Of a stretch of 64,000 bases of DNA, positions 10,525 through 58,548 are shown piece after piece. The first letter of the stretch is position 1, and the number at the start of each line of letters is the position of its first letter. This DNA comes from Cinnamomum chago. Lineage: Eukaryota > Streptophyta > Magnoliopsida > Laurales > Lauraceae. The stretch lies in assembly GCA_038049695.1 (NCBI GenBank), contig CP142458.1:44917001-44981000 (forward strand), written 5' to 3'. The notes under the pieces were generated by a model. It saw only the letters and a program-made list of their open reading frames with translations, did not search any database and was not told the origin of the DNA. The position numbers and the translations under genes are program-made.

Positions 10525-10616
10525 CTACATGACATCGTCAGCACGCCACTCAACTAGAGGTTGCAGCTCACCTACTGCCTCCTCCGGCTCCTCCTCAAGG
10601 AAACCAGCAACGGGAC
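10525..10616 (-). other. Conserved 92-bp terminal reading block (unit 4)
   Basis: From the acceptor-like TACTCAG to a stop: two bases complete a split codon, then 29 codons. The peptide starts PVAGFLEEEPEEAVGE and ends VEWRADDVM. It is followed by CATCGGGTTGC, as in the other common-subfamily copies. Confidence 0.6.
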
Positions 10617-14449: not shown

Positions 14450-14541
14450 GTACTGGAGACGTTGCCTTTGAGGAGGAGCGTCAGGAGGAGGCTTGTGAGC
14501 CAACCCCTGTGAGAGAGTGGCAGCCCGATGATGTCATTTAG
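14450..14541 (+). other. Conserved 92-bp terminal reading block (unit 3)
   Basis: The same 92-bp length in the divergent subfamily, after GGTGCCCAG. The peptide starts TGDVAFEEERQEEA and ends VREWQPDDVI. The DNA differs at many sites from the common subfamily, but the acidic run, the EW and the DDV end are kept. Confidence 0.6.
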
Positions 14542-16497: not shown

Positions 16498-16589
16498 CTA
16501 CATGACATCGTCAGCTCGCCACTCAAATAGAGGTTGCGGCTCACCTACCGCCTCCTCTGGCTCCTCCTCAAGGAAACCGGCAACGGGAC
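16498..16589 (-). other. Conserved 92-bp terminal reading block (unit 6)
   Basis: Peptide begins PVAGFLEEEPEEAVGEPQ and ends FEWRADDVM before the stop. The block starts directly after TACTCAG. Confidence 0.6.
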
Positions 16590-20978: not shown

Positions 20979-21070
20979 GTCCGGACATTGTCTATCCCGA
21001 GACGGAGCTTGAGGATGCGGTCGGTGAACCGCAACGTCTAGTCGAGTGGAATGCTGATGATGTCATTTAG
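20979..21070 (+). other. Conserved 92-bp terminal reading block (unit 7)
   Basis: Peptide begins PDIVYPETELEDAVGEPQ and ends VEWNADDVI. Its N-terminal half differs from the common form while the EW...DDVI end is kept. Confidence 0.6.
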
Positions 21071-21456: not shown

Positions 21457-21806
21457 CCTTACATGTCTTATATTGCTTATTTGTTTTCCAGTAAATGACT
21501 TATTTCTTTTAGGAAAGTTATTGCTTAAACAGATTTTAATGTGTTCCAAGGTATTTCGTTTATTATATGTTGTTATGTCTTTTCACCCGTTTGCCAAACC
21601 ATCGTGTTTGATCCATTTCTTTGGTACTCAGGTTCCGTTGCCGGTTACCTTGAGGAGGAGCCAAAGGAGGCGGTCGGTGAACCGCAACGCCTAGTTGAGT
21701 GGCACGCTGATGATGTCATTTAGATATTTGGTTCCTACGAGAGACGTAACATTTTGGAAAACTGTTTAACCATTCTTTTGGGTTATTGTATTGTTTATAT
21801 TGGCCT
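21457..21806 (+). mobile_element. 3-kb unit 8, 3' fragment
   Basis: Starts CCTTACATG, where unit 7 interrupts it, carries the 92-bp block, and stops at about 21806 within TTGGCCTTG, where a copia LTR in minus orientation begins. Confidence 0.75.
21632..21723 (+). other. Conserved 92-bp terminal reading block (unit 8)
   Basis: Peptide begins SVAGYLEEEPKEAVGEPQ and ends VEWHADDVI before TAG. Confidence 0.6.
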
Positions 21807-22931: not shown

Positions 22932-23023
22932 GTCCAGTTGCCGGTTATCTTGAGGAGGAGCCTAAGGAGGCGGTCGGTGAACCGCAGTGCTTAGTTGAGT
23001 GGCATGCCAATGATGTCGTCTAG
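22932..23023 (+). other. Conserved 92-bp terminal reading block (unit 9)
   Basis: Peptide begins PVAGYLEEEPKEAVGEPQ and ends VEWHANDVV. Confidence 0.6.
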
Positions 23024-27388: not shown

Positions 27389-29256
27389 ATCTCCCCTTTT
27401 GCAATTTGATGGCAACTCTAGAAGCTTGAACTCTCTTTTTAAAATCCTTGAAACTTGAACACCAACTTTGGAGCTTTGGATGATTTGGAGAATTTGGATA
27501 TTTTGGAGCTTTGGATTTTCCTTGCGAGAGCAACGGTAGGTAAAGCTTCTCCCCCTCAAGAAGATAACCCTTGAATCTCCTCCCCCTCAATTGGAGACCA
27601 CATGATATTTCTCTCCCCCTTTGACATCTAATTGCAAAGGAGCATGCCCATCAACGAGAAAAATACAAAACCTTGTTAGTAGCACCTGTTTATATGATAA
27701 ATAAAATGAGGAAATAGGTGATTAGCCAATAAAAATTTAGAATTCAGGGCAAGGGCCAATGCCCAATTGATGTCTCAATTTCATGAACCGATCATTTCCA
27801 AGGGGTTTAGTAAGTAAGTCAGCCAATTGAGAATCTGTTGGAACAAAAATTAATTCAATAGTGCCTTGATCAGCATGATCACGCAAAAAATGATAGTGAA
27901 TATCAATGTGTTTAGTGCGAGAGTGCTGAACAGGATTTTTAGAAATGCTAATGGCACTAGAATTGTCACACATGATAGGCATACATTGCTGTGGAACATT
28001 ATAATCTAACAAAGTTTGCTTCATCCACAACAGTTGGGCACAACAGCTACATGCAGTAATATATTCAGCTTCTGCAGTAGACAAGGATACAAAATTTTGC
28101 TTTTTGCTATGCCAAGCTACTAGGCTGTTTCCTATGAAATAACAGCAGCCACTAGTGCTTTTCCTATCGTCTATTGACCCTGCCCAATCTGCATCACTGT
28201 ATCCAATCAATTGTAATGAGGAATCACAAGGATACCAGATGCCATAATGAGATGTCCCATTGATATATTTGATAATACGTTTGACAGCTTTAAGATGGGA
28301 CTCACGAGGATCTGATTGATACCTAGCACAAATTCCAACACTAAAGGATAGATCCGGTCTGCTAGCTGTAAGGTAGAGGAGGCTACCTATCATACTTCTA
28401 TAGAGTTTTTGGTCTACCTTTTTACCATGTGGGTCACTAGAAAGTTTTGATGTAGATCCCATGGGGCTGCAGTTAATTTTAGAGTTTTCTAGACCAAACT
28501 TCTTAATAATTTCTAGAGCAAATTTGGGTTGACTAAGAAAAATTCCTTTCTCCATTTGGTTAACTTGAAGACCAAGGAAAAATTGCAGGGGACCGACCAG
28601 ACTCATCTCAAAAGTGAAACTCATTAATTCTGAAAATCCTTGAGCAAGTTTCTCTGAAGTAGATCCAAAAACTATATCATCAACGTAAATTTGAGCAACA
28701 AGAATGTCTTGATCCATTTTCTTGATAAATAGGGTCTTATCAACCTTCCCACGATCAAAGTTATTTTCGAGTAAATGATTTGTAAGCTTTTCATACCAAG
28801 CCCTAGGTGCTTGTTTTAATACATATAGAGCTTTCTTAAGTTTGTAAACATATTCAGGATGATAAGGATCTTCAAAGCCCTCTGGTTGGGTAACATACAT
28901 ATCTTCCTCAATTTCTCTATTTCAGAAAGCACTTTTGACATCCATCTGAAATAATTTGATTCTCACGTTACTAGCATATCCCAATAAAATTCGTATGAAT
29001 TCTAAATAAACTACATGAGTAAAAATTTCTTCAAAGTCAATTCCTTCTATTTGAGCATATCCTTTTGCTACAAGTCTTGCCTTGTTCCTCACAACATTGC
29101 CAGATTCATCTGATTTGTTCTTATAAATCCATTTTGTGCCAATAGGATTTTTCTCGGTGGGTAAAGGGACAAGATCCCAAACATCGTTCTTTTTAAATTG
29201 ATTCAATTCTTCTTGCATTGCTTCCATCCATTCAGATTTAGATTCAACCTCAGAAA
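27389..29256 (-). mobile_element. SIRE-like copia internal region: 3' leader, RNase H and reverse transcriptase
   Basis: The long reading frame 27737-28900 (minus) shows the copia RT/RNase H order: KLKKALYVLKQAPRAWY, the catalytic YVDD in AQIYVDDIVFGS, SRPDLSFSVGICARYQSD, DWAGSIDDRKSTSG, STAEAEY and SRTKHIDIHYHFLRDH. The frame upstream (28922-29227) covers the start of RT (KNDVWDLVPLPTEKNPIGTK). 27389-27736 is a 3' leader with several CTCCCCCT polypurine tracts, typical of SIRE/Maximus. The 5' part of the element is missing at about 29256, so this is a partial, lightly broken copy. Confidence 0.85.
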
Positions 29257-29500: not shown

Positions 29501-31491
29501 TGTCAGACCCTGACCCAAGTTTAGTATGATCAATTATTGTTTTTTTAGCCATGATTAGTCTCTAAGTGGGATTAGAGGATGATTAGTGTGATTTTAAAGC
29601 TAGATTAAACTTTTGAATAGCTGTGGGGAATTTTGAGAGGCGTTGGACTTAGTTTGACACGGGCCCGGGCGCCCGTGTGACGCGTGTTGATTTGGTAGAA
29701 CTTATTCTTGATTTCGAAGAATTCAAAATTTTACTCTTTTTTATTTGTTTTATGGATCTTAACAACTTTCATGTTTTATCCGTTTGGATTTGAAGTTCAA
29801 AAATCACGTTTTTCGAGAAAAAAGGCAAAAATAACTTTTCACAATAAATCTATGCATAAATTTCAAAATTTGCAAATCATGAGGAAAATATACTTTTTGG
29901 AAACTAGATATTTTGACGATCAATTTTGTCTTCTTCGTCGATCTCATTCGGGACACACAAATGATAGATCCAGCCATGGTAAGATTTGAGGGCCAATGGA
30001 GCCCACTTCCTCAACTTAAAACCCAAAACCCACGTTGGGTTCTCTTCTTCAGTCCCATTTCCTACAACAGCTGATCTAAGAGAGTTCTTCTTCTTCCCCC
30101 TTCTTCCAGCCACTTCTTTCCTCTTGCATGTATCCTTCTTGAATGCCATTTGGAGAGAAAACTGTTAGTTTTATGGTCTTAATACCAGTATATGATGAAT
30201 AAATTGATTAATTTCTTTATTTATCAATACAATCATGTTTTTCTTTCATGAGATGAATGGTGTTTAATTATATACTTGCACATAACCAATACGAATGACA
30301 TAATGGTTCATGAGATGAACCAGAGTCCACAAGTATACTAGATGTAATACATGTGTGTGGATGAGATCCACATACAGGAGATATGTATTTCAAATCTTAT
30401 ACTTAAATATCTTCACAACCAGTGATGAGATTGGGCATCTCATCTGACAAGGTTGCAGCACTTTGATCACTATGAGATAGTGTGATTTGTCTCGATCATC
30501 GGAATGTAAGATTCTGGATCATGTGCTGGTACATTGGATGTATTGAAGGACCATGAGAAGCACCTTATATACACTGTCTTTATTTTAAGGTCTGCTCTCA
30601 TAATTCCCTAGCAATAGGCTCATAATCCTGAGATATTAATGAACTCAAGTTTCTATCTATTCATTTTGCTTTGAGTCACCAATGAGTGAGGCCAATTGTA
30701 GGTCAACACCTCGGTGATTTGGGTATGTGGTAGTTGTAAGACCCCGATCCGAGTGAACCCGATTAGTACTAATTAAGTTGCGTGTTAATGCTAAGCTTGA
30801 TTAGTGATTTTGGCTAAGTTGGGCTTGGAATAGCTTTGGTTCTAGTTTTGGGCTACTTTGAATGCTTTGGTAACTAGTAGGACCCTTTGGGGGTTCCTTT
30901 TCATGACATTGCACATGTTTGGGGATTTATCGGAGATTTTTACATTCATGGTTTTAATCCCATTTTATTGGTATTGTTATTTCATTCAACTTTCATGTTG
31001 ATCCCGTGTCCATTTGAGATCCCGAAACCCGATTTCATAGCCTTGAGGGCAAAACAGTCATTGCACACAAAATCTGTACCCAAAACTTGATATTCCCGAA
31101 ACCCGTGAAACATATACTTTTTGGAAACTAAATATTTCGGCGATCATTTCTTTCTTCTTCGTCGAATTCATTAGAAGCCCGAAAGAGATGATTTCAGCCC
31201 AATTAGATTGGTTAGTGGTGGAGCCTACTCCCTACTTGTTTATAAGGAGAGCCTTTCCCTTCCATTTCCTTTTTTTCCAGCACAAAAAGAACTTAGGATT
31301 TGCTTTTGGCAACTTTTCTTCTTCTTCTTACTTCTTCATCCTCAATCCACTCCCAAGCTTGCACCAATAGGAGAGTTGAGGTCATCTTCTTCTTCACCTC
31401 CTTGAGAGCTTCCTCTTGATAGTTTTGTGGAGACAACCCTCCATTCCAAGACTTTCTTTGAGCTTGCCATTGCCATTAGAGGACCTTGCAA

Positions 31492-31497
31492 GTAAGT
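31492..31497 (+). other. Splice-donor-like GTAAGT (unit 12)
   Basis: GGACCTTGCAAGTAAGT is kept in several units (40653, 50314, and complement at 12586), about 760 bp from the unit start and upstream of the acceptor-like TACTCAG at 33250. Inference only. Confidence 0.4.
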
Positions 31498-32080
31498 ATT
31501 CCCCTTCATCTTCTAGATTTGTGTTCCTTTGGCCTTAGAGAAGCTTCACCTTCATTATTGTAAGGTTTCCTTGTTATTTCATTGTTTGACCATTTTAGGG
31601 TTGTGTGTTTAGGGTTTTTGCTCATAGTTTGGATTCCTTTCTTGGAAGAGTATTAGAGTTTGATTTCATTGTTAGAAGACCCAAGGCAAGTGGATGTTTT
31701 GATTTTTATAAGCTTTCAATGATTTTGGTATTTTCCACTCATGCCTATTTATTGCATTGGTTTGAAATAAATGTCCATACTAGAGTTTGGTAGTGCATTT
31801 ATGACTTATAAGTGTATTGGTGAATGTCATTTAATTCTCTTCTTGTTTGTACTAAATGTACTCTATTGTGAAATGGTTTCCTTCTTCCTTTGTATGGAAT
31901 GGAATGTGGATGGAAGAAGTGATGGAGTGAACACATAATGGGGTTTTGGAGAAGTGTAGATAGAGGCATTGGAGGAGCTCTTAGCTCAATTTTATTGCAG
32001 GGACCAAGTGGAAGTGGGGAGAATGGTTTTGAGGAGGAGAAAGGGCTTAAATCTGAACACAGTGGGTGATTCCCGCACCT

Positions 32081-32432
32081 GGCGGTCAGCCTGCGGTCAC
32101 CCGGCGGCTAGCCGCCTGGTGACTGGCGGCTAACCGCCAGCTAGCCGAAATGTCACGGTTGCTTTTCTAGAGAGCACACTTCTCCACCTGAAAACTCGGT
32201 CAACTCCACGGTTAGCCAGCGGCTAACCGCCGAACCCATCGGCGGTTAACCGCCAGCTAACAGCACCTTGGCGGTTAGCTTTCCAGTAAGCTGCATTTTG
32301 GCAGCCCGCCGCGGTCAGCTGCGCGGTCAACCAGCGGCTAGCTGCCCATCCCAGCGGCCGCCAGGTGACCGAAACTTCCCAGGTTTCGGAGAGCTCCTCG
32401 CTCGAGCGAACTCTCGGTTCGCTCGAGCGCTG
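32081..32432. repeat. Mixed palindrome array: GGCGGTTAGCCGCC then CGCTCGAGCG (unit 12)
   Basis: A dozen variants of GGCGGCTAGCCGCC / GGCGGTTAACCGCC followed by two CGCTCGAGCG motifs, so both palindrome types occur in one unit. Confidence 0.85.
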
Positions 32433-33001
32433 AGCTTTGTCGGTCAAAGGAGATTCACTAGGCATTGTATGAGGCCATTCGAGAAAGAAACCATATCACG
32501 AAGATGTCATTCGAAGTTTTGAAAATTCAAAGTGTATAAGGAGCCCGGAATGTCTTCAAACTCAAGGAGTACCAAGTTATCATTACAATCGACATACGGG
32601 ACCCCTATTCACCTTAAAAAAATCTTGAAACCAGTATTTTAACCGAAATTGTTATAGTTCATTGTTTCACTTCATTCCAAGATTTGTATTATATGATTTG
32701 TTTTCCCGAAAGCATGATAGTTACACTAGTAACAGTTTTTTGTCCCGAAATGTATTGCCCGACATGAAATGACAGTGTGCCCTTGAGCTTGGATACCTTG
32801 TCGGTTTGATCCACCGAGTTGGAGATCCCTCTCCCGTCCCGCCAGCTGCAGTTTGGATCCCGATACCCGGTCTATTACCGTGGTCCCGTCCCGATACCCG
32901 GTTAGCTACCGTGGTCCCGTCCCGTATATTTATATTGTATATATGATTTACGTTGGATCTCCTCACCTTGAGTGACTGAGATCAACGTTCCGTTATACTA
33001 T

Positions 33002-33017
33002 TGTCACTTTAGTGACA
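33002..33017 (+). repeat. Conserved hairpin (unit 12)
   Basis: TGTCAC-TTTA-GTGACA followed by GAGGACTTAGCTT. Confidence 0.55.
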
Positions 33018-33250
33018 GAGGACTTAGCTTTATGTGATTGCAATCTTGTTAGTTCCCGATTCCTTGGTTACCTTATATGGTTTTACCTTATTTACCTATT
33101 TTCTAACAAGTGATTTATCTACTTTATGAGAGTTCTTGTTTAATCAGATTTCTATGCTTTTCAAGGTATTCCCTTTATTATTATATGTTGTTGTATCTTC
33201 TCATTCTCTTGCCAGACCGTCGTGTCTGACCCAATTGCTTTGGTACTCAG

Positions 33251-33342
33251 GTCCTGTTGCCGGTTTCCTTGAGGAGGAGCCAGAGGAGGCGGTAGGTGAG
33301 CCGCAACCTCTAGTCGAGTGGCGCGCTGACGATGTCATGTAG
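33251..33342 (+). other. Conserved 92-bp terminal reading block (unit 12)
   Basis: Starts after TGGTACTCAG. Peptide begins PVAGFLEEEPEEAVGEPQ and ends VEWRADDVM before TAG. This is taken as the reference form because the unit is uninterrupted. Confidence 0.6.
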
Positions 33343-34954
33343 ACATCGGGTTGCTAAAAGAGGCGTAACATTTTGAGGGGAACTATTTAACCATTCATTG
33401 GGTTATTGTTTTGTTTATATTGGCCTTTGTTGGCCTCTAATCTTGGGAAATGTAATTAAATGATCTTTTGTTAAAACTTGAACTACTTTTGGGAAACATT
33501 TTATTGGTCATTGCTCATTCTGATACAGTAATGATACTTGATGTTATTGTCTTCATGACTAAGGATAGTCTGACTATTTGATTTGCTACATGCTTCCGCA
33601 CTTTATAGAAATGTTCATTTATGGTTGTGATATCCTCACCGTGGACACCTGTGAGAAATTAAATAAACGTATGTTATCATTTTAACAGATGTAATATGGA
33701 ATTCAGTTAGTCCCGATCCCGGATCGGTTCCTTCATGGATTCCCGGTCCGGGGTCGCGACAGTAGTAGAGCTGTGGGAACATTCAATGGTCAAGATGAAA
33801 TCTCTCTTTAATATCCCCTTGTGCCAATTAATGGATTTATCATTTGTAAGTGCGCACCCATTCCAATTAAGAGTTAATTGGATCGGTACCAAATGATCAT
33901 TATAATTAATTGGGGCTTAATGATAATAAGATATGGATCTAATTTGGTGGATAGGTCCAATTGATCCATGGATATAGATGGAGGGGCCTGCTTGTGGTAA
34001 TGTGGAAGTTTAGGGTCTTCATTGTAATTTATTCCTAAGACTGGAGTGCAAATACATTTATATAGTGGAGTTATTTGCAATTAACTGTGGGCCCGGATTG
34101 CCCATGAGATGTGGGGTCGCGTGTCCCAGTTGGAGCAAGCTTTCTAAGGAATCCCTAGTAGTCTCCACGCTAGCCCAAGTTATTAGAAAGATACTAATTA
34201 TAGTAGACCTCTAAAAGGAAATAGAAAGTTACTATTTCTATTTAAAGTGAGACTTCTAATAGTGGTAATAGTAAGTTACTAATTATTAATGGAAGTAGGA
34301 CTTCTATTTTAATTAGAAAGGAGAAAGCTACTAATTGTTGTGGAAGTGAGACTTCTATGACAATTAGCAAGGGAGAAGGTTACTATTTTGTAATGGGAGT
34401 CAAACTTCTATTTCAAATAGGAAAAGAGGTGGGTTTGAGGGCTATATAAAGAGGAATTAACCACTCTTGGACGTCCTCTATGTAGTGATTTAGGCCCAGC
34501 CCATTCAATTGTGCAAGAGTTGCACACCTCTCTTCCTCTCCCTCTTCTAGTTTCTATTCTAGTTTCCTTTAGGGTTTTTCTCTTGGAGATTCCACCATCT
34601 TCTTGAGAAAAGAGAATCTGATATGGGTCATAGTGTAGAAGATCAAAAGGTGTTGGAGATTCTAATTTGATTAGTGAAGGTGTTCATCATCAAAGAAAGA
34701 ATTCAAATTCTCCATTAGAGCACAACCAAGCTCCAAAGGTATAAACTACATCCTTGTATGTTGTGGATTTCGTGGTTGCATATTTAGGTGTTGTTTTCTA
34801 TCTTCTAGATATGTTATATTGCTGTACATGATTTATGAGTTTGAGGGATTGCATCCTGGATTGGGTTTATGGCCTTTTAGATAGTTAATCCTGGCATCAA
34901 GTGGGTCAAATTTTTTTGAAATCTATCTGAATGACCCACCTATTTTCCAACAAT

Positions 34955-36750: not shown

Positions 36751-37587
36751 CATGAATTCAAGTACTTTCAATCCACTTGCGACCATCCTCAACCAAAATA
36801 GGTTGATGGAATCCAACTTTATAGACTGGAAAAGGACCCTGGATATTATCCTGACAACTTCAGGATGCAGATATGTCCTTACCATAACCCCCCCCTTCCT
36901 GAGCCTGAGCTTCATGCACCTCAGTATGAAAAGGACCTTTACACCAAATGGACAAAAGACAATGAGGTAGCTAGATGTTTTATACAGGTATCCATGTCTA
37001 GTGTTTTACAACACCAACATCAATCCTATAAGTCAGTATACGATATTATATCGAACTTAAAAAAGATGTTTGCGGACCAGGTTAGACCTGCTAGGCAAGC
37101 TGCTATGAAGGTGCTGATAAACACTAAGATGACTGAGGAAACCCCAGTACAAAAACATTTGTTGAAGATGAGTCTTGCACTAAATGAGTTAGATGTACTG
37201 GGTGTTACGATTGATAAAGAATCGCAGATCGACATGATCCTTCAGTCACTACTGGATTCTTTCAATCATTTCGAGATCAATTATAATAAATTGGAAATGA
37301 CCATTGCTGAGCTGTCTCGCCAGCTGGTAGTGACTGAGGAAATCATGAAGAAAGAGCAAAATTCCCTCATGACAAAAAAGTCATTTGCTAGGACCAAGCC
37401 GAAAGGCAAAGACCGAGATAGCAAGAAGAAATCAGTCATCATGGGTCCTAAGGTGGAGAATGACTCTACTTGTAGTATGGCCAAGGCTAAGGGTACGGGA
37501 GTAAAAGGAAAGTGTTTCCATTGTGGTAAGACATGACATTGGAAAAGGAATTGTCCAGAATATCTGTCTAAGAAGAAGACCTCAGGT
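36751..37587 (+). pseudogene. Copia E gag region
   Basis: Gag text begins near 36751 (NPLATILNQNRLM) and the main frame spans 36865-37536. It contains SVLQHQHQSYKSVYDI, lysine-rich KPKGKDRDSKKK and the start of a CCHC zinc knuckle (KGKCFHCGKT), the nucleic-acid-binding part of gag. It is a fossil with a few breaks. The knuckle and spacing to integrase place it firmly in Ty1/copia. Confidence 0.8.
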
Positions 37588-39871
37588 ATGATTGAGTCAC
37601 TTATCTCTGAAGTTAGTTTTGCAACTGGTACTTCAGAATCTTGGTGTATGGACTCCAGTGCAACTGATCACATATGTAATTCGTTGCAGGGGTTCAGGAA
37701 AATCAGGAGGTTCAGTGACGGAGAAATCATTGTCAACCTAGGATCTGATGCTAAGGCAGATGCTGTTTTAGTGAGAGTTATTACATTATGTTTAACAAAT
37801 GATAAATTGGTTTTGTCAGACACGTTATATGTACCGTCTTTACGGCGGAATTCAATTTCAGTTTCTGGCTTGGTGAATAAGAGTTATTCTATTACTCTTG
37901 GTACTGAAATTGTCATAAAGAGATATGGTACTTTTATGTATTCTGACAAGGTAATCAATGGAATTTATTTGTTAATCCCACAATGTATGAGATACATGAT
38001 ACTGAAACAACTAATAGAACATCATTAAAGAGGAAATCAGCTTCATCTGATCCAACAAAACTTTGGCACTTGAGGCTAGGTCATATAAACCTAAATAGGA
38101 TTGACAGGCTAGTGAAAGATGGTATCTTGCCTTCATTGGTTATAGAACCAATGCCTGTCTGTGAGTCCTGTCTGGAAGGTAAAATGAACAAAAGGGCCCT
38201 TTTCATCAAAGGGCAATAGGGCCAAAGATTTGTTAGAATTAGTGTATACTGATGTCTGTTGACCTATTAATGTCAGGGCCAGAGGAGGATATCTCTTCGC
38301 TGATTTTATGGGATACTTATCAGAAAATGGGATTTTATCCCAATTGTTTGCTCCTGGTATGCCTCAACAGAATGGAGTAGCAGAAAGAAGGAACCAGACT
38401 CTTTTAGATATGATTAGGTCTATGTTGAGTTTCTCAGGGTTACCTATATCCTTTTGGGGATATGCCTTGGATACTGCGATGTACATACTAAACCTCGTAC
38501 CATCTAAGTCTGTACCGAAGACTCCCCGAGAGTTATGGTCTGGGCGAAAACCTAGTCTACAACATTTACACATTTGGGGTTGTCCGGCACATGTGCTAAA
38601 GGTTAAGACGGATCAGTTGGAGGCGAAGTCGGAAGTATGCACGTTTATAGGATATCCTAAATGAACTAAAGGTTGGTTATTCTATAATCCCAGAGAGTAG
38701 AAAGTGATGGTGAGCACTAATGCGGTTTTTCTGGAGGAAGATTATATGATAGACTGGAAACCTTTAGAAAAAGGTGATCTTGGAAGAAATTCAAGAGCAA
38801 ACGATTCCAAATCCTAGTATGACCGAACCTAAGGAAGAAACGCCCTTACCGGACCCAGTAGTTACACCAGTGCCTCGTCGTAGTGGGAGGATTGTCAGAC
38901 CCCCTGACAGGTTCTCGTTCTTCGGAGAGTCTTACGAGGCAGTCCCGGAAGAACCGGAACAAGATCGCTGTAACTATGATGAAGCAATTAATGACATAGA
39001 TTCGGGACGTTGGCAAGATGCTATGAAAGCTGAGATGGAGTCTATGTACTCTAATCAGGTCTGGATACTTGTGGACTTGCCTGCCAATATCAAACTTATT
39101 GGGTGCAAGTGAGTCTACAAGAGAAACAGAGGACCAGATGGAAGAGTTGAGACCTTTAAAGGTCAGGCTTGTTGCGAAAGGATATACTCAGAAAGAAGAT
39201 ATCGATTATGAGGAAACCTTCTCGCCGGTAGCCATGCTCAAGTCCATCCGGATACTCTTATCCATAGCGGCTCATCTCGATTATGAGATTTGAAAAATGG
39301 ATGTCAAGACAACGTTTCTCAACGGCCATCTTGACGAAGACATCTATATGATGCAGCCAGACGATTTTATAGCTAAACAACCAAGAGCAAAGAGTTTGCA
39401 ACATGCAGATGTCCATTTATGGACTGAAGCAGGCATCCCGAAGTTGGAACATTTGTTTTGACTAAGGAATCAATTTAGTTGATTTTTGTTAAAATCCGGA
39501 TGAGTCATGAGTGTACATGAAAAGTAAAGGAGGCAGGGTAATTTTTCTAGTCGACGACATCCTTCTCCTAGAGAGTGGTATGTGGATGTTGTCAACAGTA
39601 AACGGTTTAGTTGGCTAAGACTTTTGATATGAATGACTTGGGAGAAGCCAGCCACATCCTAGGGATCAAACTCCATTGAGACCGGATAAATAGGATGATA
39701 GGATTATCCCAATATGCGTACACAGATAAGGTGCTGGTACGGTTTGCTATGCAAGACTCCAGGAAGGGTATTACACCTTTCAGGCATGGAGTGTACCTTT
39801 CTAAGGATCAGTGTCCCAAGACACCTGAGGAAAATGAGCAGATGAGGTCGATACCATACGTTTCGGGTGTT
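37588..39871 (+). pseudogene. Copia E protease, integrase and reverse transcriptase regions
   Basis: In order: a protease-like stretch (SWCMDSSATDHICN near 37640, the copia aspartic protease region), the integrase zinc domain (LWHLRLGHINLNRI, then CESCLEGKM), the integrase core end ([19 protein letters not shown] near 38357), a linker (RRSGRIVRPPDRFSF) and RT start ([20 protein letters not shown] near 39160). The order protease-integrase-RT-RNase H defines copia. The region is decayed with several breaks and is cut by unit 13. Confidence 0.85.
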
Positions 39872-41239
39872 GGTAGTGTAAGACCCCGACCCGAGTGAAC
39901 CCAATTAGTGCTAATTAAGTTGCATGTTAGTACTAAGCCCGATTAGTGATTTTGACTAAGTTGAGTTTGGATTAGCTTTGATTATAGTTTTGGGCTAATT
40001 TGAATGTCTTGATTTACTTTGTGTTAATGGGGCCCTTTGGGGGTTCCTCTTTATGACAGTTCATTTGATTGAAGATTTATCGAAAGTGTTTGCGTTCATG
40101 ATTTTAATTCCGTTTTACTCGCTTTGATGATCCCTACAACTTTCATGTTGATCCCGTTTTCGTTTGAGATCCCGAAACCCGAATTCTTGGCCTTGAGGGC
40201 AAAACAGTCATTTCACACCAAATTTGTACCCAAAACTTAATATTCTCGAAACCCGCGAAACATACACTTTTTGGAAACTAGATATTTCGACGAACATTTC
40301 TTCCTTCTTCGTCGAATTCATCCGAGGACCCGAGAGAGATGATTTCAGCCAATGTAGCTTCTTTAGTTGTGGGACCTAACCCAACCCAACTCATTTGTTA
40401 ACAAGAGAAGCCATTTTCCTTCTTCTTCATTCTTCTTTTCCAGCACAAGAGAGAAAGCTAGGGCTTTGTGAGGAACTCTTCTTCTTCTTGCTTCTCCATC
40501 TCAAATCCACTCCCAAACTTGCACCAGGAGGAGATTGGAGGCCACCATCTTCTTCATCTCCTTGAGAGCTTCTTTTCAATAGCTTTTGTGGAGCAAATCA
40601 TCCATTTCAAGACCTCCTTTGAGCCTACCATTGCCATTAGAGGACCTTGCAAGTAAGTAATCCCCTTCATCTCCAAGATTAGTGTTCCTCTAGCTCTTGA
40701 TAAGCCCCATTTACATTATTGAAAGTCCTTTCAATTTCATTCTTGGTGTAACCCATTTTAGGGTTTTATTTTTGGGGTTTTGCCTTGTAGCTTGGATTCA
40801 TTGTCTTGGAAGACTTGATAGAGCTTGATTTCATTGTTAGAAGACCTAAGGCAAGTGGATAAATGATTTTCCTAAGCTTCCATTAATTTTGGGATATTCT
40901 CCATTAATGTACATTTAATGCTTTATTTTAAATGGATGCCCATGATAGAGTATTAATGACACATTTATGATCTTTGAGAAGTAGTAGTTTATGGCATTGA
41001 ATGTCTCCTTGTTTTATTGCAAATGTATATAAATATTGTGAAATGGTTTCCTCCTCCCCTTTTTCCTTATGTTGAGTGCATGGTTGATGGAGGAGAATAT
41101 GATGGATTAGAGGAGGGATTGGATGTAGTTTGAGTGGAGAAATAGACTCCTCATTTGATGCATATGAAGGGCTGGAGGAAGGTTGAAAAAGGGAAGAGAA
41201 AGAGGACAACTGAACTGGTCCGGAATCCATTTCTGGACC

Positions 41240-41390
41240 GTTCGCTCGAGCGACCATGACACTTCGCTCGAGTGACCTGTCCAGGAAAGGATTCGGGCAT
41301 TTCCAGTAGCTTGGTCACTCGACCGCATTTTAATAATCGCTCGACAGATGAGTTCGCTCGAGCGAACTCTTCGACTCGCTCGAGCAATGC
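41240..41390. repeat. CGCTCGAGCG palindrome array (unit 13)
   Basis: Six or so TTCGCTCGAGCGA motifs or variants in 150 bp. Confidence 0.8.
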
Positions 41391-42293
41391 GGTCTGCCTG
41401 GCATAGGCCACGTTGGGATAACGTTGAACTGTTTTAATGCACTGGGGCAAAATTTCGTCTTGAGCCGATGCTCTTCATGGTTGGTTCGGAATGCATCGAA
41501 GTTCAATCTACTCCATCTTGAACGGGATGGAACGACACGATATCTCCTTCATACCTAAATGCAAAGTCTATTTCCTTGGGTATCGCGAATTCTATTCCTT
41601 TCGGTGACTGAGTAGGTTGCTCGATGGTTCCGAGTTGACATCATACTTAGGATGGACCGTATATTGTCTTGATCTTCTATGGTAATACCTAGTTCTAACC
41701 ATAAGCTCATGTTAAGTTTTAAAAATAGTAAAAGTGCATAAGGAGCCCGGAATGTCTTCAAACTCAAGAGTACCAAATCATTTCCATAATCGACATACGG
41801 GACCCCTATTCACTTAAATAGATCTTGAAATCAATATTTTTCCCGAAAATTGTTATAGTTCATGTTATTTCTTCATTTCCAAGATTTACTTTACATGATC
41901 TGTTTTCCCGAAAGCTTGATGGTTACACTAGTAACATTGACCTGTCCCGAAGAGTATTGCCCGACATGAAATAAAAGTTATACATTTGGATATTCTTGCC
42001 CGTTCATTGATTTACTGATATTTGATTTACTTGCTTATGTATCGATGTGTTATTTAACCTATGTGTCGGCATCACTAAGCTTGGATACCTGGTCGGTTTG
42101 ATCCACCGACTTGGAAATCCCTCTCCCGTCCGGCCAGCTGCAGTTTGGATCCCGATACCCGGTCATTACCGTGGTCCCGTCTCGATACCCGGTTCGCTAC
42201 CGTGGTCCCGTTCCCGTATATTTATATTGTATATATGATTTGCTTTGAATCTCCTCACCTTGGGTGACTGAGATCAACATCCCGTGATACTGT

Positions 42294-42309
42294 TGTCACT
42301 TTAGTGACA
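42294..42309 (+). repeat. Conserved hairpin (unit 13)
   Basis: TGTCAC-TTTA-GTGACA, followed by GAGGACTTAGC. Confidence 0.55.
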
Positions 42310-42537
42310 GAGGACTTAGCTTTATGTGATTGCCATCTTGTGAGTTCCCGATCCCTTGGTTACCTCATATGTTTTATCTTGTTTACATGTTTTCTAGCAA
42401 ATGATTTATCTATTTTATGAGAGTTCTTGCTTAAATAGATTTCCTTGCTTTTCGAGATATTTCATCTATTTTATGTTGTTGCATCTTCTCACTCTCTTGC
42501 CAGACCGTCGTGTCTGATCCTTTGCTTTGGTACTCAG

Positions 42538-42629
42538 GTCCCGTTGCCGGTTTCCTTGAGGAGGAGCCGGAGGAGACGGTAGGTGAGCTGCAACCTCTAG
42601 TTGAGTGGCGCGCTGATGATGTCATGTAG
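42538..42629 (+). other. Conserved 92-bp terminal reading block (unit 13)
   Basis: Peptide begins PVAGFLEEEPEETVGELQ and ends VEWRADDVM before TAG. Confidence 0.6.
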
Positions 42630-43040
42630 ACATCGGGTTGCTACAAGAGGCGTAATTTTGGGGATAACTTATTAACCATTCTTTTGGGTTATTATTTTGT
42701 TATATTGGCCTTGTTGGCCTCTAATTTTGGGGAATGTAACTAAATGATATTTTGTCTAACTTTAACAACTTTTGGGAAACTTGCTATAGATCATTGCTCA
42801 TTCTGATACAGTTTTGATATTTGATGTTAATGCTTGTATGACTAGAGATAGTCTACTATTTGATTTGCTACACGCTTCCGCACTCAAAAGAAATATTCAT
42901 GCAAGGTTGTGATATCCTCACCGCGGACACCTGTGGGAAATTAAATAAATTGTATATTATGGATGTAGACCCTTTAATCATCATCTACTAATGTCCCGAT
43001 CCCGGATTCGGATTTCTCGGTCCGGGGTCACGACAGGTAG

Positions 43041-47275: not shown

Positions 47276-47367
47276 ATATCGACCTCGCTCCCTTCGAGGC
47301 GGAGTACGAGGAGGAGGCGGTAGCACCGCCGGATGGACGTGAGTGGAAGCCCAACGATGTCATATAG
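47276..47367 (+). other. Conserved 92-bp terminal reading block (unit 11)
   Basis: Starts after TGGTGCCAG. Peptide begins IDLAPFEAEYEEEAVAP and ends REWKPNDVI. This is the most divergent copy, yet exactly the same length and with the same EW...DVI end. Confidence 0.6.
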
Positions 47368-49273: not shown

Positions 49274-50063
49274 TCTTCTGTTTCACCCTAGAGAAAGGAA
49301 GGGGGAATGTAAAACGAAGGCTTTGGTGTTGATACTTCTTTTATTCCATCCTTTGAACGTTATAGAAAAATGTGAAGACGACTCTCGCGAATGTTTGCTT
49401 GCGTAAGAGGAATTGTCCCCACTTTTATTTACACGGGTTCTTCATTGCTTCACCTTCTGAGTGCAGGTTGTTTACAATGTTTCATACAACCCCCTCGTCA
49501 GGCTTAGGAGATCAAAGTAAAGGAGATATACATCGAAGGGAGAGAAGGGGAGTCTGCTATTGTAAGACCCCGACTCGAGCGAACTCGATTAGTACTAATT
49601 AAGTCCTGTGTTAGTTCTAAGCTTGATTAGTGATTTTGGCTAAGCTGGGTTTGGAATAGCTTTTGAAATAGTTTTGGGGAATTTTGATTGCTTTGTGATT
49701 AGTGGGGCCCTTTGGGGGTTCCTTTTTATGACCTTGCATGCGCTTGAGGATTTATCGGAGATTTTGCATTCATTGTCTTAATCCCGTTTTAGTTGTATTG
49801 TTAACCCCTACAACTTTCATGTTGATCCCGTCCCCGTTCGAGATCCCGAAACCCGATTTCATAGCCTTGAGGGCAAAACCGTCATTGCACATAAAATCTG
49901 TACCCAAAACTTGATATTCCTGAAACCCGCGAAACATGTACTTTTGAAAAACTATATATGTCGAAGATTACTTTTCTCTTCTTCATCGAATTCATTAGAA
50001 GCCCCGAAAGCCAAGATTTCAACCCTTGAATGTCTTAAGTAGTGGGACCCATCTCCATTTGCT

Positions 50064-51372: not shown

Positions 51373-52771
51373 AGCTTTGTCTGTCAAAGGAGATCCACTA
51401 GGCATTGTATGAGGCCATCCGAGAAAGAAACCATATCACGAAGATGTCATTCTAAGTTTTGAAAATTCAAAGTGTATAAGGACCCCGAAGTGTCCCCAAA
51501 CTCAAGGAGTACCAAGTTTTATATATATTGACATACGAGATCCCTATTCACCTTGAACTAGTCTTGAACCTCGATACTTGTCCTGAGATTTCAAAAGCTC
51601 TATAGTATTTCATTGTTCCCGAGATTTATACTACATGCCTTGTTTTCCCGAAAGTATTGAATTACACTCGAAATTGTTACTTGTCTTGAAGTGCATTGCA
51701 TCACATGAAACGACAGTGTGCCCTTGAGCACCCTCGTCTTGCCCGTTTATTTATTGTACTTGATTTACTTGCATATGTCTCGATTTGTTATTTGACCTAT
51801 TAGTCGGCACTACTAAGCTTGGATAACCCTGTTGGTCTGATCCACCGACTTGAAGATCCCCCTCTTGTCCCGCCAGCTTCAGTTTGGATTCCGCTACCCG
51901 GTTATTACCGTGGTCTTGTCCCGATGCCGCAGATTGCTACTGTGGTTCCCGATGCCCGGCTCGCTACCGTGGTTATGTATAGTATATGTATATGTATTTA
52001 TAAGATCCACTGTTTCTCCTCACCTCGAGTGACTAAGATCAGTGCTTAGTTATTGCTGTGTCACTTTAGTAATAGAGGACTTAGCTTCGTGTGGTTGCCA
52101 TCTTGCTTGTTTCCCGTTTCCTTGGTTACCTTACATGTTTTATAATGCACACTCGTATTTGAATAAATATTTTATGTCGTTTATAGAAATTGTTATTTAA
52201 ACATGTTTAAATGCTTTTGAAGGTAAATTCATTTATTATCATATTGTCATTGTATTTTACCATTTGTCAAACCGTTATGTTTGACCCACTCTTTGGTACT
52301 CAGGTCCCGTTGTTGGTTATCCCGAGGAGGAGCTCGAGGAGGCGGTCGGAGAACCGCAACAGTTAGTTGAGTGGTGTCGCGACCCCGGATCGGGCCCCCA
52401 CGAAGGAAACAATCCGGGATCGGGACTAAATGATGATCCACATTACATTTATCTAATTTCCCACAGGTGTCCGTGGTGAGGATATCACAACCATCAATGA
52501 ATATTTCTTTTAAGTGCGGAAGCATGTAGCAAATCAATAGTTGGACTATTTCTAGTCATGAAGGCATTAACATCAAGTCTAAAGTACTGTATCAGAATGA
52601 GCAATGAACATTAGCATGTTACCCAAAGTAGGTTAAAGTTTATGCAAATATCATTTAATTACATTTCCCAAAATTAGAGACCAACAAAGGCCAATATAAC
52701 AAAATGATAACCCAAAAGAATGGTTAAGTAGTTCTCCTCAAAATGTTACGCCTCTCTTAGCAACCCGATGT

Positions 52772-52863
52772 CTACATGACATCGTCCGCGCGCCACTCGA
52801 CTAGAGGTTGCGGTTCACCTACCGCCTCCTCCGACTCCTCCTCAAGGAAACTGGTGACGGGAC
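52772..52863 (-). other. Conserved 92-bp terminal reading block (unit 15)
   Basis: Peptide begins PVTSFLEEESEEAVGEPQ and ends VEWRADDVM. Confidence 0.6.
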
Positions 52864-53756
52864 CTGAGTACCAAAGCAAATGGGTCAGACACGACGGTCT
52901 GGCAAGAGGATGAGAAGATACAACAACATATAATAAAGGAAATACCTTGAAAAGCATAGAAATCTGTTTAAACAAGAACTCTCATAGAATAGATAAATCA
53001 CTTGTTAGAAAACAGGTAAATCCATATAAGGTAACCAAGGAATCGGGAACTAACAAGATGACAATCACATAAAGCTAAGTCCTCTGTTACTAAAGTGACA
53101 ACAGTATAACGGGACGTTGATCTCAGTCACACAAGGTGAGGAGAATCAACGCAAATCATATATACAATATAAATATACGGGACGGGACCACGGTAGCGAA
53201 CCGGGTATCGGGACGGGACCACGGTATTAGACCGGGTATCGGGATCCAAACTGCAGCTGGCGGGACGGGAGAGGGATCTCCAAGTCGGTGGATCAAACCG
53301 ACAAGGTATCCAAGCTTAGTGATGCCGACTCATAGGTCAAATAACAAATTGAGACATATGCAAGTAAATCAAGTACAATAAATAAACGAGCAAGACGGGG
53401 GTGCTCAAGGGCACACTGTCATTTCATGTCGGGCAATACATTTCGGGACAAATAACTGTTACTAGTGTAACTATCATGCTTTCGGGAAAACAAATCATAT
53501 AATACAAATCTTGGAATGAAGTGAAACAATGAACTATAACAATTTCTGTTAAAATACTGGTTTCAAGATTTGTTTAAGGTGAATAGGGGTCCCGTATGTC
53601 GATTGTAATGATAACTTGGTACTCCTTGAGTTTGAAGACATTCCGGGCTCCTTATACACTTTGAATTTTCAAAACTTCGAATGACATCTTCGTAATATGG
53701 TTTCTTTCTCGAATGGCCCCATACAATGCCTAGTAAATCTCCTTTGACTGACAAAG

Positions 53757-54100
53757 CTCAGCGCTCGAGCGAGGAGCTTTTTGAAACCTGGGAAATTACG
53801 GTCACCTGGTGGTTAGCCGCCGCTGGGATGGGCGGCTAGCCGCTGGATGACCGTGCAGCTGACCGCGGCTGGGCTGCAGAAATGCAGCTTACTGGAAAAC
53901 TAACCGCCAATGTGAGGTTAGTTGGCGGTTAGCCGCCAATGGGTTCGGCGGTTAGCCGCTAGCTAACCGTGGAGTTGACCGATTTTTCAGTGGAGAAGTG
54001 TGCTCTCTGGAAAAGCAACCATGACATTTCGGCTAGCTGGCGGTTAGCCGCCAGTCACCAGGCGGCTAGTCGCCGGGTGACCGTAGGCTGACCGCCAGGT
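53757..54100. repeat. GGCGGTTAGCCGCC array with one CGCTCGAGCG (unit 15)
   Basis: A dozen GGTTAGCCGCC variants. The single AGCGCTCGAGCG lies at the 3' side in unit orientation, as in units 12 and 14. Confidence 0.85.
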
Positions 54101-54769
54101 GCGGAAAACACCCACTGTGTTTAGATTTGAGCCATTTCTCCTCCTCAAAACCATTCTCCCCACTTCCACTTAGTCCCTGCAATATAACTGAGCTAGGGGC
54201 TCCTCCAGTGCATCTATTTATATTTCCCCAAAACTCCAATATGTGTTCATTCATCTCTTTCACTCTTCCACATCAAGTGCAATACAAAGGAAGGAGGAAG
54301 GAAACCATTTCACAAACATTCATTTAGGATATACACAAAAGACAATAAATGCTAATCTAACATGTTTACAAAACATTAAATGAGGCTATCAATATGCAAA
54401 AAGGGCATTTATTTCGACCATAAACACATTAATGAAAGCATGAAAATCCATAAATGCTTCACCAAAATATTTAAAACTTAAAACACTTCATCATTCACTT
54501 GCCTCAAGTCCAAGCTAGCTGTACCAAGCCTCAAGTTACCTCTATAGCTCAAATCCAAGCTACAATAAAAAAAACCCCCAAAACAACCCTAAAATGGGTT
54601 ACACAAAGAATGAAAATGATAGAACTTTCAATAATGCAAATGTAGCTTCCCTAGGGCTGAAAGAACACTAATCTAGAAGATGGGAATGATTACTCACTTG
54701 GATGACCTTCAAAAAAGAGAGCTAGCTCAAAAAAGATCTTAAGGCTGGGAGATTTCTCCAAAAACAGTA

Positions 54770-54814
54770 TCAAGATGAAGCTTGCAAGTTGAGGAAGAGG
54801 ATGGTGAGTTCCAT
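54770..54814 (-). other. Conserved 15-codon mini-ORF (unit 15)
   Basis: 45 bp, peptide MELTILFLNLQASS. Confidence 0.4.
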
Positions 54815-56727
54815 TTAGATGTTGGTGCAAGATTGGTGTGGATTAGAGATGAAGAAGCAAGAAGAAGAAGTTGCAAGAAAAACCCTAGGTTCAATAGTTT
54901 GTACTGGAACAAGGGATTGGAATGGGGAAATGAAGAAGGGGGGTTTCCCTTTGTTAACAAATGGGATTGGGTCCCACAACTAAAGAAACTTGGGTGGCTG
55001 AAATCATCTCTTTCGGGACCTCAGATGGATTCGACAAAGAAGGAAGAAATGATCGTCGAAATATCTAGTTTCTAAAAAGTATATGTTTCGCGGGTTTCGG
55101 AAATATCAAGTTTTGGGTACAGATTTTGTGTGAAATGACTGTTTTGTCCTCAAGGCTATGAAATCGGGTTTCGGGATCTCAAATGGACACGGGATCAACA
55201 TGAAAGTTGAATGAAATAACAATACCAATAAAACGGGATTAAAACCATGAATGCAAAAATCTCCGATAGATCCCCAAACATGTGCAATGTCATGAAAAGG
55301 AACCCCCAAGGGTCCTACTAGTTACCAAAGCATTCAAAGTGGCCCAAAACTAGAATCAAAGCTATTCCAAGCCCAACTTAGCCAAAATCACTAATCAAGC
55401 TTAGCACTAACACGCAACTTAATTAGTACTAATTGGGTTCTCTCGGGTCGGGGTCTTACAAGTGGCGCGCCGATGATGTCATTTAGACATTCGGTCGTGT
55501 TGAGATGCGATTCATTTTGGGAGTTGTGGATGACTCATTCTTTTGGGATTATATTTTGAGATGTATTGGCCTTTGTTGGCCTCTATTTTTGGGGAATGTA
55601 ACTAACTGATCTTTTGTTTAAACTTTAACTTAGTTTTGGGGTAACATGCTAATGATCATTGCTCATTCTGATACGGTACTAGACTTGTGTTATTATCTTT
55701 ATGATTTGAGATGGATTGAATATTTGATTTGCTACACGCTTCCACACTTAATAGAAATATTCATATATGGTTGTGATATCCTCACCGCGGACACCTGTGG
55801 GAAATTAAATAAATGTGTGCACCTTGCTGACACACTCTACATATTAACCATTCAATCACCGCACCATCATCCTTAGTGTCCCGATCCCGGATTAGTCCTT
55901 CGGGCCCGGTCCGGGGTCGCGACAGCTATTTTCAAGAGTTCGCTGGAGATGGAATTGGAGAAGTCTACAATTTGGCTTCTTTGGGCAGTCTCTGTAGTTC
56001 ACCACCATTATTAAGGAAAAAAGATTAATCAGAGAAGTCTGCTTCAAAACAACATAGACAATCTCCGTCCTTCCTCTATGGTGGGAGGAACAAAGACTGC
56101 CTTTCGGAAGCCGTCGTCCAGGTCCAAAGAGAAGCGTCCACTACTGCCTGATTCTCACCTTGTTGATGAAGCTTGTTGATGAAGGAGGAGAGTGTCTTGA
56201 AAATGACAGTGTCTAGGCTTTCTTGCGCTTGAGTTCAAGGGGGGGGGTTCACGCTCTCCCAAGTCTTCCTTTTATATCTTTTGGAGGAGCCATAACTGCT
56301 GGAGATCATGGAGGAGTGGAGGTGGTTTCAAAACCATCTTCAGTGGGAGACATTGCAAGTTCAGTGGCCATGAGAAGAAGGAACTGGCCAGTTCGTGGGA
56401 GATCATGGGCATCCAACGGCCAATGCAGAAAGAAGTGCGGTGGCTAGTGCGCATGACGTCCAGCGGTCACTTCTTGATTGGAGCCCAGCGGCTGCTTCAT
56501 TGCTTTGAGCGGCCAGTGTGTATGACGTTCAACGGTCACTTCTTGACTGGAGACCAGTGGCTGCTTCATTGCTTTAAGCGGCCAGTGTGTTCAAGGGTTG
56601 CAACGGCCAATGGGCCTTGTAATCAGTACCCCCTGAGGGGTTCTCGTGTTGTGGCCGGCCAGACTTTAATATCATCAGTTCCTTTATGGAGAAATGAGTA
56701 ATTTGCCTTAGGGAAGGTTATGTACAG

Positions 56728-58462: not shown

Positions 58463-58548
58463 CTACATGACATAGCCGACAAAACAACCTGCAAAACATG
58501 GCTCCACAGCCAACTCAAGCACTCGACTCGGGACGAAGCAATCTGAAC
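58463..58548 (-). other. Terminal reading block of unit 18, 86 bp
   Basis: Six bases (two codons) shorter than the other eleven and much diverged in the middle. It still starts after TACTCAG, stays in frame and ends YVM before TAG. Confidence 0.45.

What the first reader, a model, noticed from the sequence alone, without database searches (positions are those of the whole stretch)
33251..33342. A 92-bp reading block of constant length in every 3-kb unit, from splice-acceptor-like TACTCAG to stop
Twelve blocks are visible (10525, 14450, 16498, 20979, 21632, 22932, 33251, 42538, 47276, 52304/55466, 52772, 58463). Eleven are exactly 92 bp (one of them counted across an insertion); the twelfth differs by two whole codons. 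The DNA between subfamilies differs at many sites, but the frame stays open and the acidic run, the EW and the final D-V-(I/M/V)-stop persist. Flanking sequence is full of length changes. This is the pattern of a coding exon (phase: two bases complete a split codon), not of a passive LTR. I do not recognise the peptide from any family.
Basis: partly seen in the sequence, partly recalled or inferred. Interest (0 to 1): 0.85.

Follow-up and report, generated by a model that had tools for sequence, protein, structure and literature searches.

The report
Hidden protein exon inside retrotransposon LTRs
A short stretch inside the long terminal repeats of an abundant plant retrotransposon evolves like real protein-coding sequence and is most likely a spliced last exon that gives the element's integrase an alternative acidic tail.

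Summary
The block is real. The 3-kb units are long terminal repeats (LTRs; the five checked here are solo) of a Ty3/gypsy chromovirus family with thousands of candidate copies in a 1.06-Gb plant genome. In a six-frame scan of the whole LTR the block has the lowest pN/pS. Coding constraint is significant only from nucleotide 24 (window 33274), directly after a pyrimidine stretch and an AG. In full-length elements coding constraint stops just after the chromodomain, at a GT donor in phase 0, which matches the LTR exon. Best explanation: some transcripts are spliced from the end of pol, across the polypurine tract and most of the 3' LTR (about 2.6 kb), into this exon, giving integrase a tail ending EW..(D/N)DV(I/M)-stop. 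Coding is well supported. The splice is inferred: no RNA was available, and a better-looking acceptor at TACTCAG is out of phase. A group of copies with a closed frame, lacking gag where the interior could be read, keeps the flanking RNA hairpins. The nearest precedent is CRM group A, whose integrase reads directly into its LTR.

The parts
30735..33761 (+). Solo LTR of the Tekay-like chromovirus family that carries the block; 5-bp target-site duplication GTAGT at 30730-30734 and 33762-33766
   Evidence: termini and duplication; full-length relative with two such LTRs
33213..33228 (+). Conserved hairpin CAGAC-CGTCGT-GTCTG just upstream of the block; GC to AT covariation at one pair; followed by a branchpoint-like CTGAY
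   Evidence: 574 of 615 pair cells formed in 123 rows; third pair formed in 109 rows against 93.6 in shuffles, 0 of 1000 shuffles reach it
33244..33250 (+).
   Evidence: AG in 107 of 125 rows, C or T before it in 123 of 125; also present in the closed-frame rows L056, L061, L064
33267..33273 (+). Pyrimidine stretch plus AG(2), candidate in-phase 3' splice site (YYYYGAG|G)
   Evidence: over 100 rows nt 17, 18 and 20 are pyrimidine in 100 and nt 19 in 95; AG in 112 of 125 rows
33274..33342 (+). Coding exon: 22 codons plus stop, EEPEEAVGEPQPLVEWRADDVM-stop
   Evidence: pN/pS 0.447, 0 of 2000 shuffles (45 DNA-selected rows); 0 of 1000 (100 rows); LTR-wide minimum
33330..33348 (+). Second hairpin with the stop codon at its loop (CGATGTC-ATNTA-GACRTCG); mostly invariant or wobble pairs
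   Evidence: 814 of 854 pair cells formed in 122 rows; one of seven pairs clearly exceeds shuffles (5 of 1000)
10525..10593 (-). Coding exon in LTR 13354-10109 (family A)
14473..14541 (+). Coding exon, family B
16498..16566 (-). Coding exon in LTR 18976-16080 (family A)
21002..21070 (+). Coding exon, divergent family A
21655..21723 (+). Coding exon, family A
22955..23023 (+). Coding exon, family A
42561..42629 (+). Coding exon in LTR 39877-43035 (family A)
47299..47367 (+). Coding exon, family C
52327..52374 (+). First part of a coding exon split by insertion of LTR 52375-55460; second part 55466-55486
52772..52840 (-). Coding exon in LTR 55460-52375 (family A)
58463..58548 (-). 86-nt homologous block without the acidic run or EW; its LTR 3' part resembles that of the closed-frame copy L056

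Best explanation
The block is the last coding exon of the element's own gag-pol gene, placed inside the LTR. Transcription from the 5' LTR gives a full-length RNA. Unspliced, it is the genomic RNA and its pol frame ends at or just past the polypurine tract. In a subset of transcripts a donor directly after the integrase chromodomain is joined to an AG inside the 3' LTR (window equivalent 33273|33274). This removes the old pol end, the polypurine tract, U3 and part of R. It appends about 22 residues rich in Glu/Asp that end in EW..(D/N)DV(I/M)-stop. The result is an integrase with a second kind of C-terminus, made from an RNA that can be translated but not reverse transcribed. Because LTRs are copied to both ends, LTRs in general, solo ones included, carry the exon. 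Shown: LTR identity, coding selection on nt 24-92, where coding constraint ends in pol, phase agreement. Inferred: that splicing occurs, that AG(2) is the acceptor, and what the tail does (targeting, tethering or control of integration, by analogy with other chromovirus tails).
For: Lowest pN/pS of the whole LTR: 0.355 (windows running just past the stop codon), 0.378-0.425 with 0 stops in 224 codons for windows inside the frame, against a median of 0.88 over 5880 window-frames; nine LTRs, eight of which reach the block. Peptide frame dN/dS 0.21-0.35, other frames 0.67-1.06. Coding signal in nt 24-89 (0 of 2000 shuffles) but not, pooled, in nt 3-23. No other LTR stretch is both open and as constrained, so the partner exon should lie in the internal region. 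In pol, the 60 nt before the donor are strongly constrained (pN/pS 0.136, 0 of 2000 shuffles, 20 rows) and the 27 nt after it are not (0.789, 766 of 2000, 13 C-type rows). Donor GTTAGT in 12, GTGAGT in 7 and GTTAAT in 1 of the 20 rows that my search pattern caught out of 21; the pattern itself asked for GTNA in all but one form. GTAAAT beside L002, GTAATT in family B. The donor lies 2 codons after the Chromo match. Its phase is 0, the phase of an exon starting at nt 24. The pyrimidine stretch before AG(2) varies only between C and T at three of four positions. Eight copies (grouped by this very feature) share a closed frame; the 2 of them with a recognisable primer-binding site have no gag match behind it, and the 3 of them in the hairpin table keep the hairpins, one with a mismatch.
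Against: No RNA data. AG(1) at TACTCAG is the better-looking acceptor (C or T at -3 in 123 of 125 rows; branchpoint-like CTGAY and a U-rich stretch before it), is about as conserved as AG(2) (107 against 112 of 125), and lies between that branchpoint and AG(2); joined to the pol donor it gives the wrong frame. AG(2) has G at -3, which is unusual (recalled). In family A taken alone nt 3-23 look coding (27 of 2000, 5 rows; 72 of 1500, 9 rows); C and others lean the same way (122 of 1500). nt 1-23 keep their length in 118 of 125 rows. Family B's donor is weak (not listed at a score of 3 or more on my recalled matrix), and similar or stronger single donors exist elsewhere (L135:1516, 6.9; L072:290, 5.1). 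The family C example L072 has an earlier stop in pol. A gapped-pattern search for an intronless copy found one match, which is an LTR with a deletion. The pol-end rows were chosen by a protein query that covered both sides of the donor.
Confidence: 0.58

Rival explanations
1. A different 5' exon is joined at AG(1) in phase 1, giving a separate small accessory protein (comparable in genome position to retroviral proteins encoded in the LTR).
For: AG(1) looks like a good plant acceptor and is kept in 107 of 125 rows; nt 1-23 are 23 long in 118 of 125 rows. In family A alone nt 3-23 look coding in the peptide frame (27 of 2000 shuffles, 5 rows).
Against: The only phase-1 donor found in more than one family at a score of 3 or more lies in an RT motif that I recall as general to Ty3/gypsy. 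nt 3-23 show the opposite of coding in the DNA-selected set (pN/pS 1.575). AG(1) is also present in closed-frame copies, so its conservation need not reflect this exon.
Confidence: 0.17
2. A small peptide gene wholly inside the LTR: in family A a mini-exon ATG NNN NNN (A/G)AG|GTA lies about 85 nt upstream of AG(1), in phase 0 with nt 24; solo LTRs would then be tiny genes.
For: Present in 4 of the 5 family A sequences inspected by eye (w33251, w20979, w21632, L009); the phase fits AG(2).
Against: ATG is absent in w22932; no such donor is seen in the family B and C rows, and it is mutated in L137, although their exon is equally constrained.
Confidence: 0.08
3. The stretch is only a conserved RNA element (hairpins, packaging or dimer signal) and the open frame is a by-product.
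For: Two conserved hairpins flank or overlap it; conservation continues about 8-12 nt past the stop; closed-frame copies keep the hairpins.
Against: The codon pattern is strongest in nt 45-68, outside both hairpins (0 of 1000 shuffles); third positions vary most in nt 24-89 (0.57, 0.73, 1.00 bits over 100 rows).
Confidence: 0.07
4. Ordinary remnant: a once-coding piece inherited by dead LTRs, no longer used by any element.
For: 20 of 100 length-92 rows have internal stops and 25 of 125 aligned rows were set aside for indels.
Against: Selection between lineages is strong, and a full-length copy with 99.2% identical LTR parts (908 nt compared) keeps the frame in both LTRs.
Confidence: 0.1

Closest known systems
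CRM group A centromeric chromoviruses (PMC3059260, passages seen)
   Same: Chromovirus whose integrase C-terminus is encoded inside the 3' LTR; there the LTR-encoded CR motif is tied to centromere targeting.
   Different: In CRM the polyprotein frame extends into the 3' LTR. Here the pol frame stops at or just past the LTR start, and the LTR exon lies about 2.6 kb further, near the 3' end of the LTR, so splicing is needed. The tail was not compared with the CR motif.
Tekay/Del chromoviruses (PMC6317226, passages seen)
   Same: Chromovirus of the long-LTR kind with one gag-pol frame (features of the clade recalled).
   Different: I found no mention of an LTR exon or splicing for this clade in the passages seen; my searches are listed in Tried and rejected.
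Spliced plant elements: Ogre, EVADE shGAG, BARE1, sunflower Tyran and Varan (PMC6317226, PMC12786077 and PMC7730604, passages; PMC3735527, search listing and start of abstract)
   Same: Splicing of only part of the transcripts sets apart RNAs for different proteins or controls pol.
   Different: In the passages seen those introns lie between or within gag and pol parts or shorten gag; here the intron would run from the pol end to an acceptor inside the 3' LTR and remove the polypurine tract and U3.
Retroviral proteins encoded in the LTR (nef, MMTV sag; recalled)
   Same: Coding sequence placed in the LTR and reached by splicing.
   Different: Here it would be a short tail of pol, not a separate protein.

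Membership tests
LTR of an LTR retrotransposon | TG..CA termini with short target-site duplication | tested here: met
   5 of 5 units checked
LTR of an LTR retrotransposon | Two LTRs flanking primer-binding site, gag-pol and polypurine tract | tested here: met
   C3 copy, L009 and L010; PBS of the tRNA-Met kind (identity recalled); polypurine tract before the 3' LTR
Chromovirus (Ty3/gypsy) | RT-RNaseH-integrase order with C-terminal chromodomain | tested here: met
   Pfam RVT_1, RT_RNaseH, Integrase_H2C2, rve, SH3_Tf2-1, Chromo in five separate pieces; rve (28.1 against 32.6) and Chromo (21.7 against 25.1) are below their curated cut-offs
Tekay/Del clade | RT phylogenetic placement with Tekay | not tested
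   Named from long LTRs and a single gag-pol frame only
CRM group A | Polyprotein frame reads without interruption into the 3' LTR and encodes the tail there | tested here: not met
   The pol frame ends at MP-stop (A copy L010) or a few codons into the LTR (several C rows); the exon is 2.6 kb downstream
Protein-coding exon | Purifying selection in one frame, stop kept | tested here: met
   terminal stop kept in 94 of 100 rows, no internal stop in 80 of 100
Protein-coding exon | Splice junction in RNA | not testable with these tools
   No transcript data held
Separate LTR-encoded accessory gene | Own start codon or dedicated first exon conserved in all families | tested here: not met
   No shared in-frame ATG upstream seen in the listed frames and alignment; the family A mini-exon is not seen in the B and C rows

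The most novel reading that the evidence does not exclude
An abundant chromovirus keeps the last exon of its integrase inside its own LTR and reaches it by splicing out the polypurine tract and U3. One splice thus both gives integrase a second, acidic targeting-type tail and sets that RNA aside for translation only, and the many solo LTRs carry ready-made coding exons through the host genome.
Probability: 0.5. Interest if true: 0.75.

Novelty: new variant of a known kind. Interest (0 to 1): 0.62.

Why it matters
How LTR retrotransposons divide one RNA between translation and replication, and how chromoviruses choose insertion sites, are open questions. An exon hidden in the LTR that can be joined only by destroying the replicability of the RNA would answer part of the first, and a swappable integrase tail bears on the second. 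It would also mean that annotation which treats LTRs as non-coding misses part of pol, and that solo LTRs spread splice acceptors and coding exons through the host genome.

Tried and rejected
Direct reading from the 5' LTR or a solo LTR: no shared in-frame ATG seen; the spacing upstream of TACTCAG varies between families and the frame there is closed at different points. AG(1) as start of the coding exon: disfavoured by phase and by the pooled substitution pattern, though family A alone points the other way. The TTGCCAG acceptor at 33216: its spacing to AG(1) varies, in phase for L009 but not for most, and the AG is missing in the family B rows. A second coding block in U3 (31050-31170): low pN/pS but 12 stops in 252 codons, so not coding in that frame. 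Intronless genomic copy as sign of splicing: one pattern match, an LTR deletion; a negative with low power. Homologues outside this genome: only the plasmid collection was searched, near mode (no match); the pol end was also compared with solved structures (best Ty3 Gag-Pol, E 0.0012). Literature: searches (listings and starts of abstracts) and passages of four papers gave no LTR exon of a Tekay element; the library holds only open-licence papers.

Full report
WHERE. The window lies in a 1.06-Gb assembly of 14 contigs (C8:44917001-44981000), by its repeats a plant. It is a nest of retrotransposons. The 3-kb units are LTRs. Five checked (30735-33761, 39877-43035, 13354-10109, 18976-16080, 55460-52375) have TG..CA ends and matching 5-bp target-site duplications, so they are solo LTRs; the last one sits inside the block of another LTR. 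A full-length relative (C3:80734558-80745685, L009 and L010) has two such LTRs around one gag-pol frame with gag, protease, RT, RNase H, integrase and a chromodomain at the very end. I call it Tekay-like; its place in a tree was not tested.

THE OBSERVATION. The block is as described, 92 nt in 11 of 12 places and 86 nt in the twelfth, which lacks the acidic run and EW. Copies are probably in the thousands: the first look of the genome searches gave 3920, 2881 and 606 candidates for three starting copies, possibly overlapping, of which 40 each were scored.

IS IT CODING. Windows of 87 nt in all six frames were scored for pN/pS across nine LTRs, eight of which reach the block. The lowest values of the whole LTR fall on the block in the peptide frame: 0.355 for windows running just past the stop, 0.378-0.425 with 0 stops in 224 codons for windows inside the frame, against a median of 0.88 over 5880 window-frames. 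In 55 gap-free copies of 65 aligned, dN/dS is 0.21 (family A, 5 rows), 0.31 (C and others, 46 rows) and 0.35 (20 representatives); the other frames give 0.67-1.06. Forty of the 65 rows had been picked by a protein search, so I fetched 60 more out of 121 rows listed by three DNA searches (their three query copies came from the protein search). Fifteen were set aside because their block length was not 92 (78-93 nt). In the other 45, nt 24-89 give pN/pS 0.447 and none of 2000 column shuffles does as well; nt 3-23 give 1.575 and 1949 of 2000 shuffles do as well or better. With all 100 rows together: 0 of 1000 and 667 of 1000. Family A alone points the other way in nt 3-23 (27 of 2000 with 5 rows; 72 of 1500 with 9 rows), and C with others leans so too (122 of 1500). 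The terminal stop is kept in 94 of 100 rows and no internal stop is present in 80; the other two frames are open in 41 and 0.

WHERE THE EXON STARTS. The coding signal begins where an AG (nt 22-23; AG in 112 of 125 rows) follows four positions that are pyrimidine in 100, 100, 95 and 100 of 100 rows. This is what a polypyrimidine tract and a 3' splice site would leave, although G at -3 is unusual. The AG at TACTCAG is kept in 107 of 125 rows with C or T before it in 123 and looks better as an acceptor. It is preceded by a hairpin (CAGAC..GTCTG, with one covarying pair) ending in a branchpoint-like CTGAY, at a spacing that varies. But this upstream part is also kept in copies whose frame is closed, so its conservation need not belong to the exon.

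WHAT IT IS JOINED TO. No other LTR stretch is both open and as constrained, so the partner should lie inside the element. On a recalled donor matrix the best-scoring site shared by families A and C is at the end of pol, right after the chromodomain: LLPE|GTGAGT (5.0) and LLPE|GTTAGT (5.2). Similar or higher single sites exist but are not shared (L135:1516, L072:290). Of 21 pol ends (19 fetched of 150 listed, plus two held), 20 were caught by my pattern: 12 GTTAGT, 7 GTGAGT, 1 GTTAAT; the missed one, L117, also reads GTTAGT in the alignment. A copy beside L002 has GTAAAT and family B has the weaker GTAATT. Coding constraint is strong up to this point (60 nt before: pN/pS 0.136, 0 of 2000 shuffles, 20 rows) and not detectable after it (27 nt after: 0.789, 766 of 2000; 13 rows), where families differ by 6-7 nt and end at different stops. 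The stretch after the donor varies little, so that test has low power. The donor is in phase 0, and so is an exon beginning at nt 24. In the C3 copy the intron would be L010:555-3198, 2644 nt, taking out the polypurine tract, U3 and part of R.

A NATURAL CONTROL. Eight copies (L056, L059, L061, L062, L063, L064, L068, L070), grouped by this feature, have the frame closed by a stop 19 codons before its end. Two of them show a primer-binding site, and neither has a gag match behind it within about 1 kb, whereas four of five other copies with a primer-binding site do (19 copies examined). The three of the eight that are in the hairpin table keep both hairpins, one with a mismatch. So the cis-acting RNA parts appear to be needed by copies without gag, and the coding part does not.

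HOW IT MAY WORK. The spliced RNA could be translated but not replicated, and would give integrase an acidic tail in place of the unspliced end. A role in target choice or in control of integration is a guess from CRM group A, where an LTR-encoded tail is tied to centromere targeting (PMC3059260, passages), and from other integrase tails. No RNA, peptide or other-species data were available, so the splice and the function remain inferred.

Noticed in passing
L009:3800-3830, L071:1060-1096 and copies: Just before the gag ATG, copies of families A, B and C share an acceptor-like string (CTAAC...TTTTRCAG, ATG 4 nt on), suggesting a leader intron; the donor is uncertain (perhaps GAGGATYC|GTNAG). 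By eye it is not in the two copies without gag (L064, L068).
   Followed up: partly
33242-33256 and homologues: TTTGGTRCYCAG upstream of the exon resembles the primer-binding site TTGGTATCAGAGC and is present even in closed-frame copies.
   Followed up: no
31050-31170 (U3 of LTR 30735): About 120 bp conserved between families A and C (76% identity) with low pN/pS but stops; a possible regulatory element. A related open frame runs antisense to an LTR at 61586-62026 (by eye).
   Followed up: partly
G000:C6:26777530-26786532 and G000:C3:41048991-41085789: Regular head-to-tail series of block matches at about 1800-bp and about 5250-bp spacing: LTR-derived tandem arrays.
   Followed up: no
27737-28921 (-) and 36802-38664 (+): Ty1/copia remnants: RVT_2, Retrotran_gag_2 and SH3_retrovirus matches.
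   Followed up: no
52375-55460 inside the LTR starting at 49561: One LTR has inserted into the coding exon of another, with CCACT duplication.
   Followed up: yes
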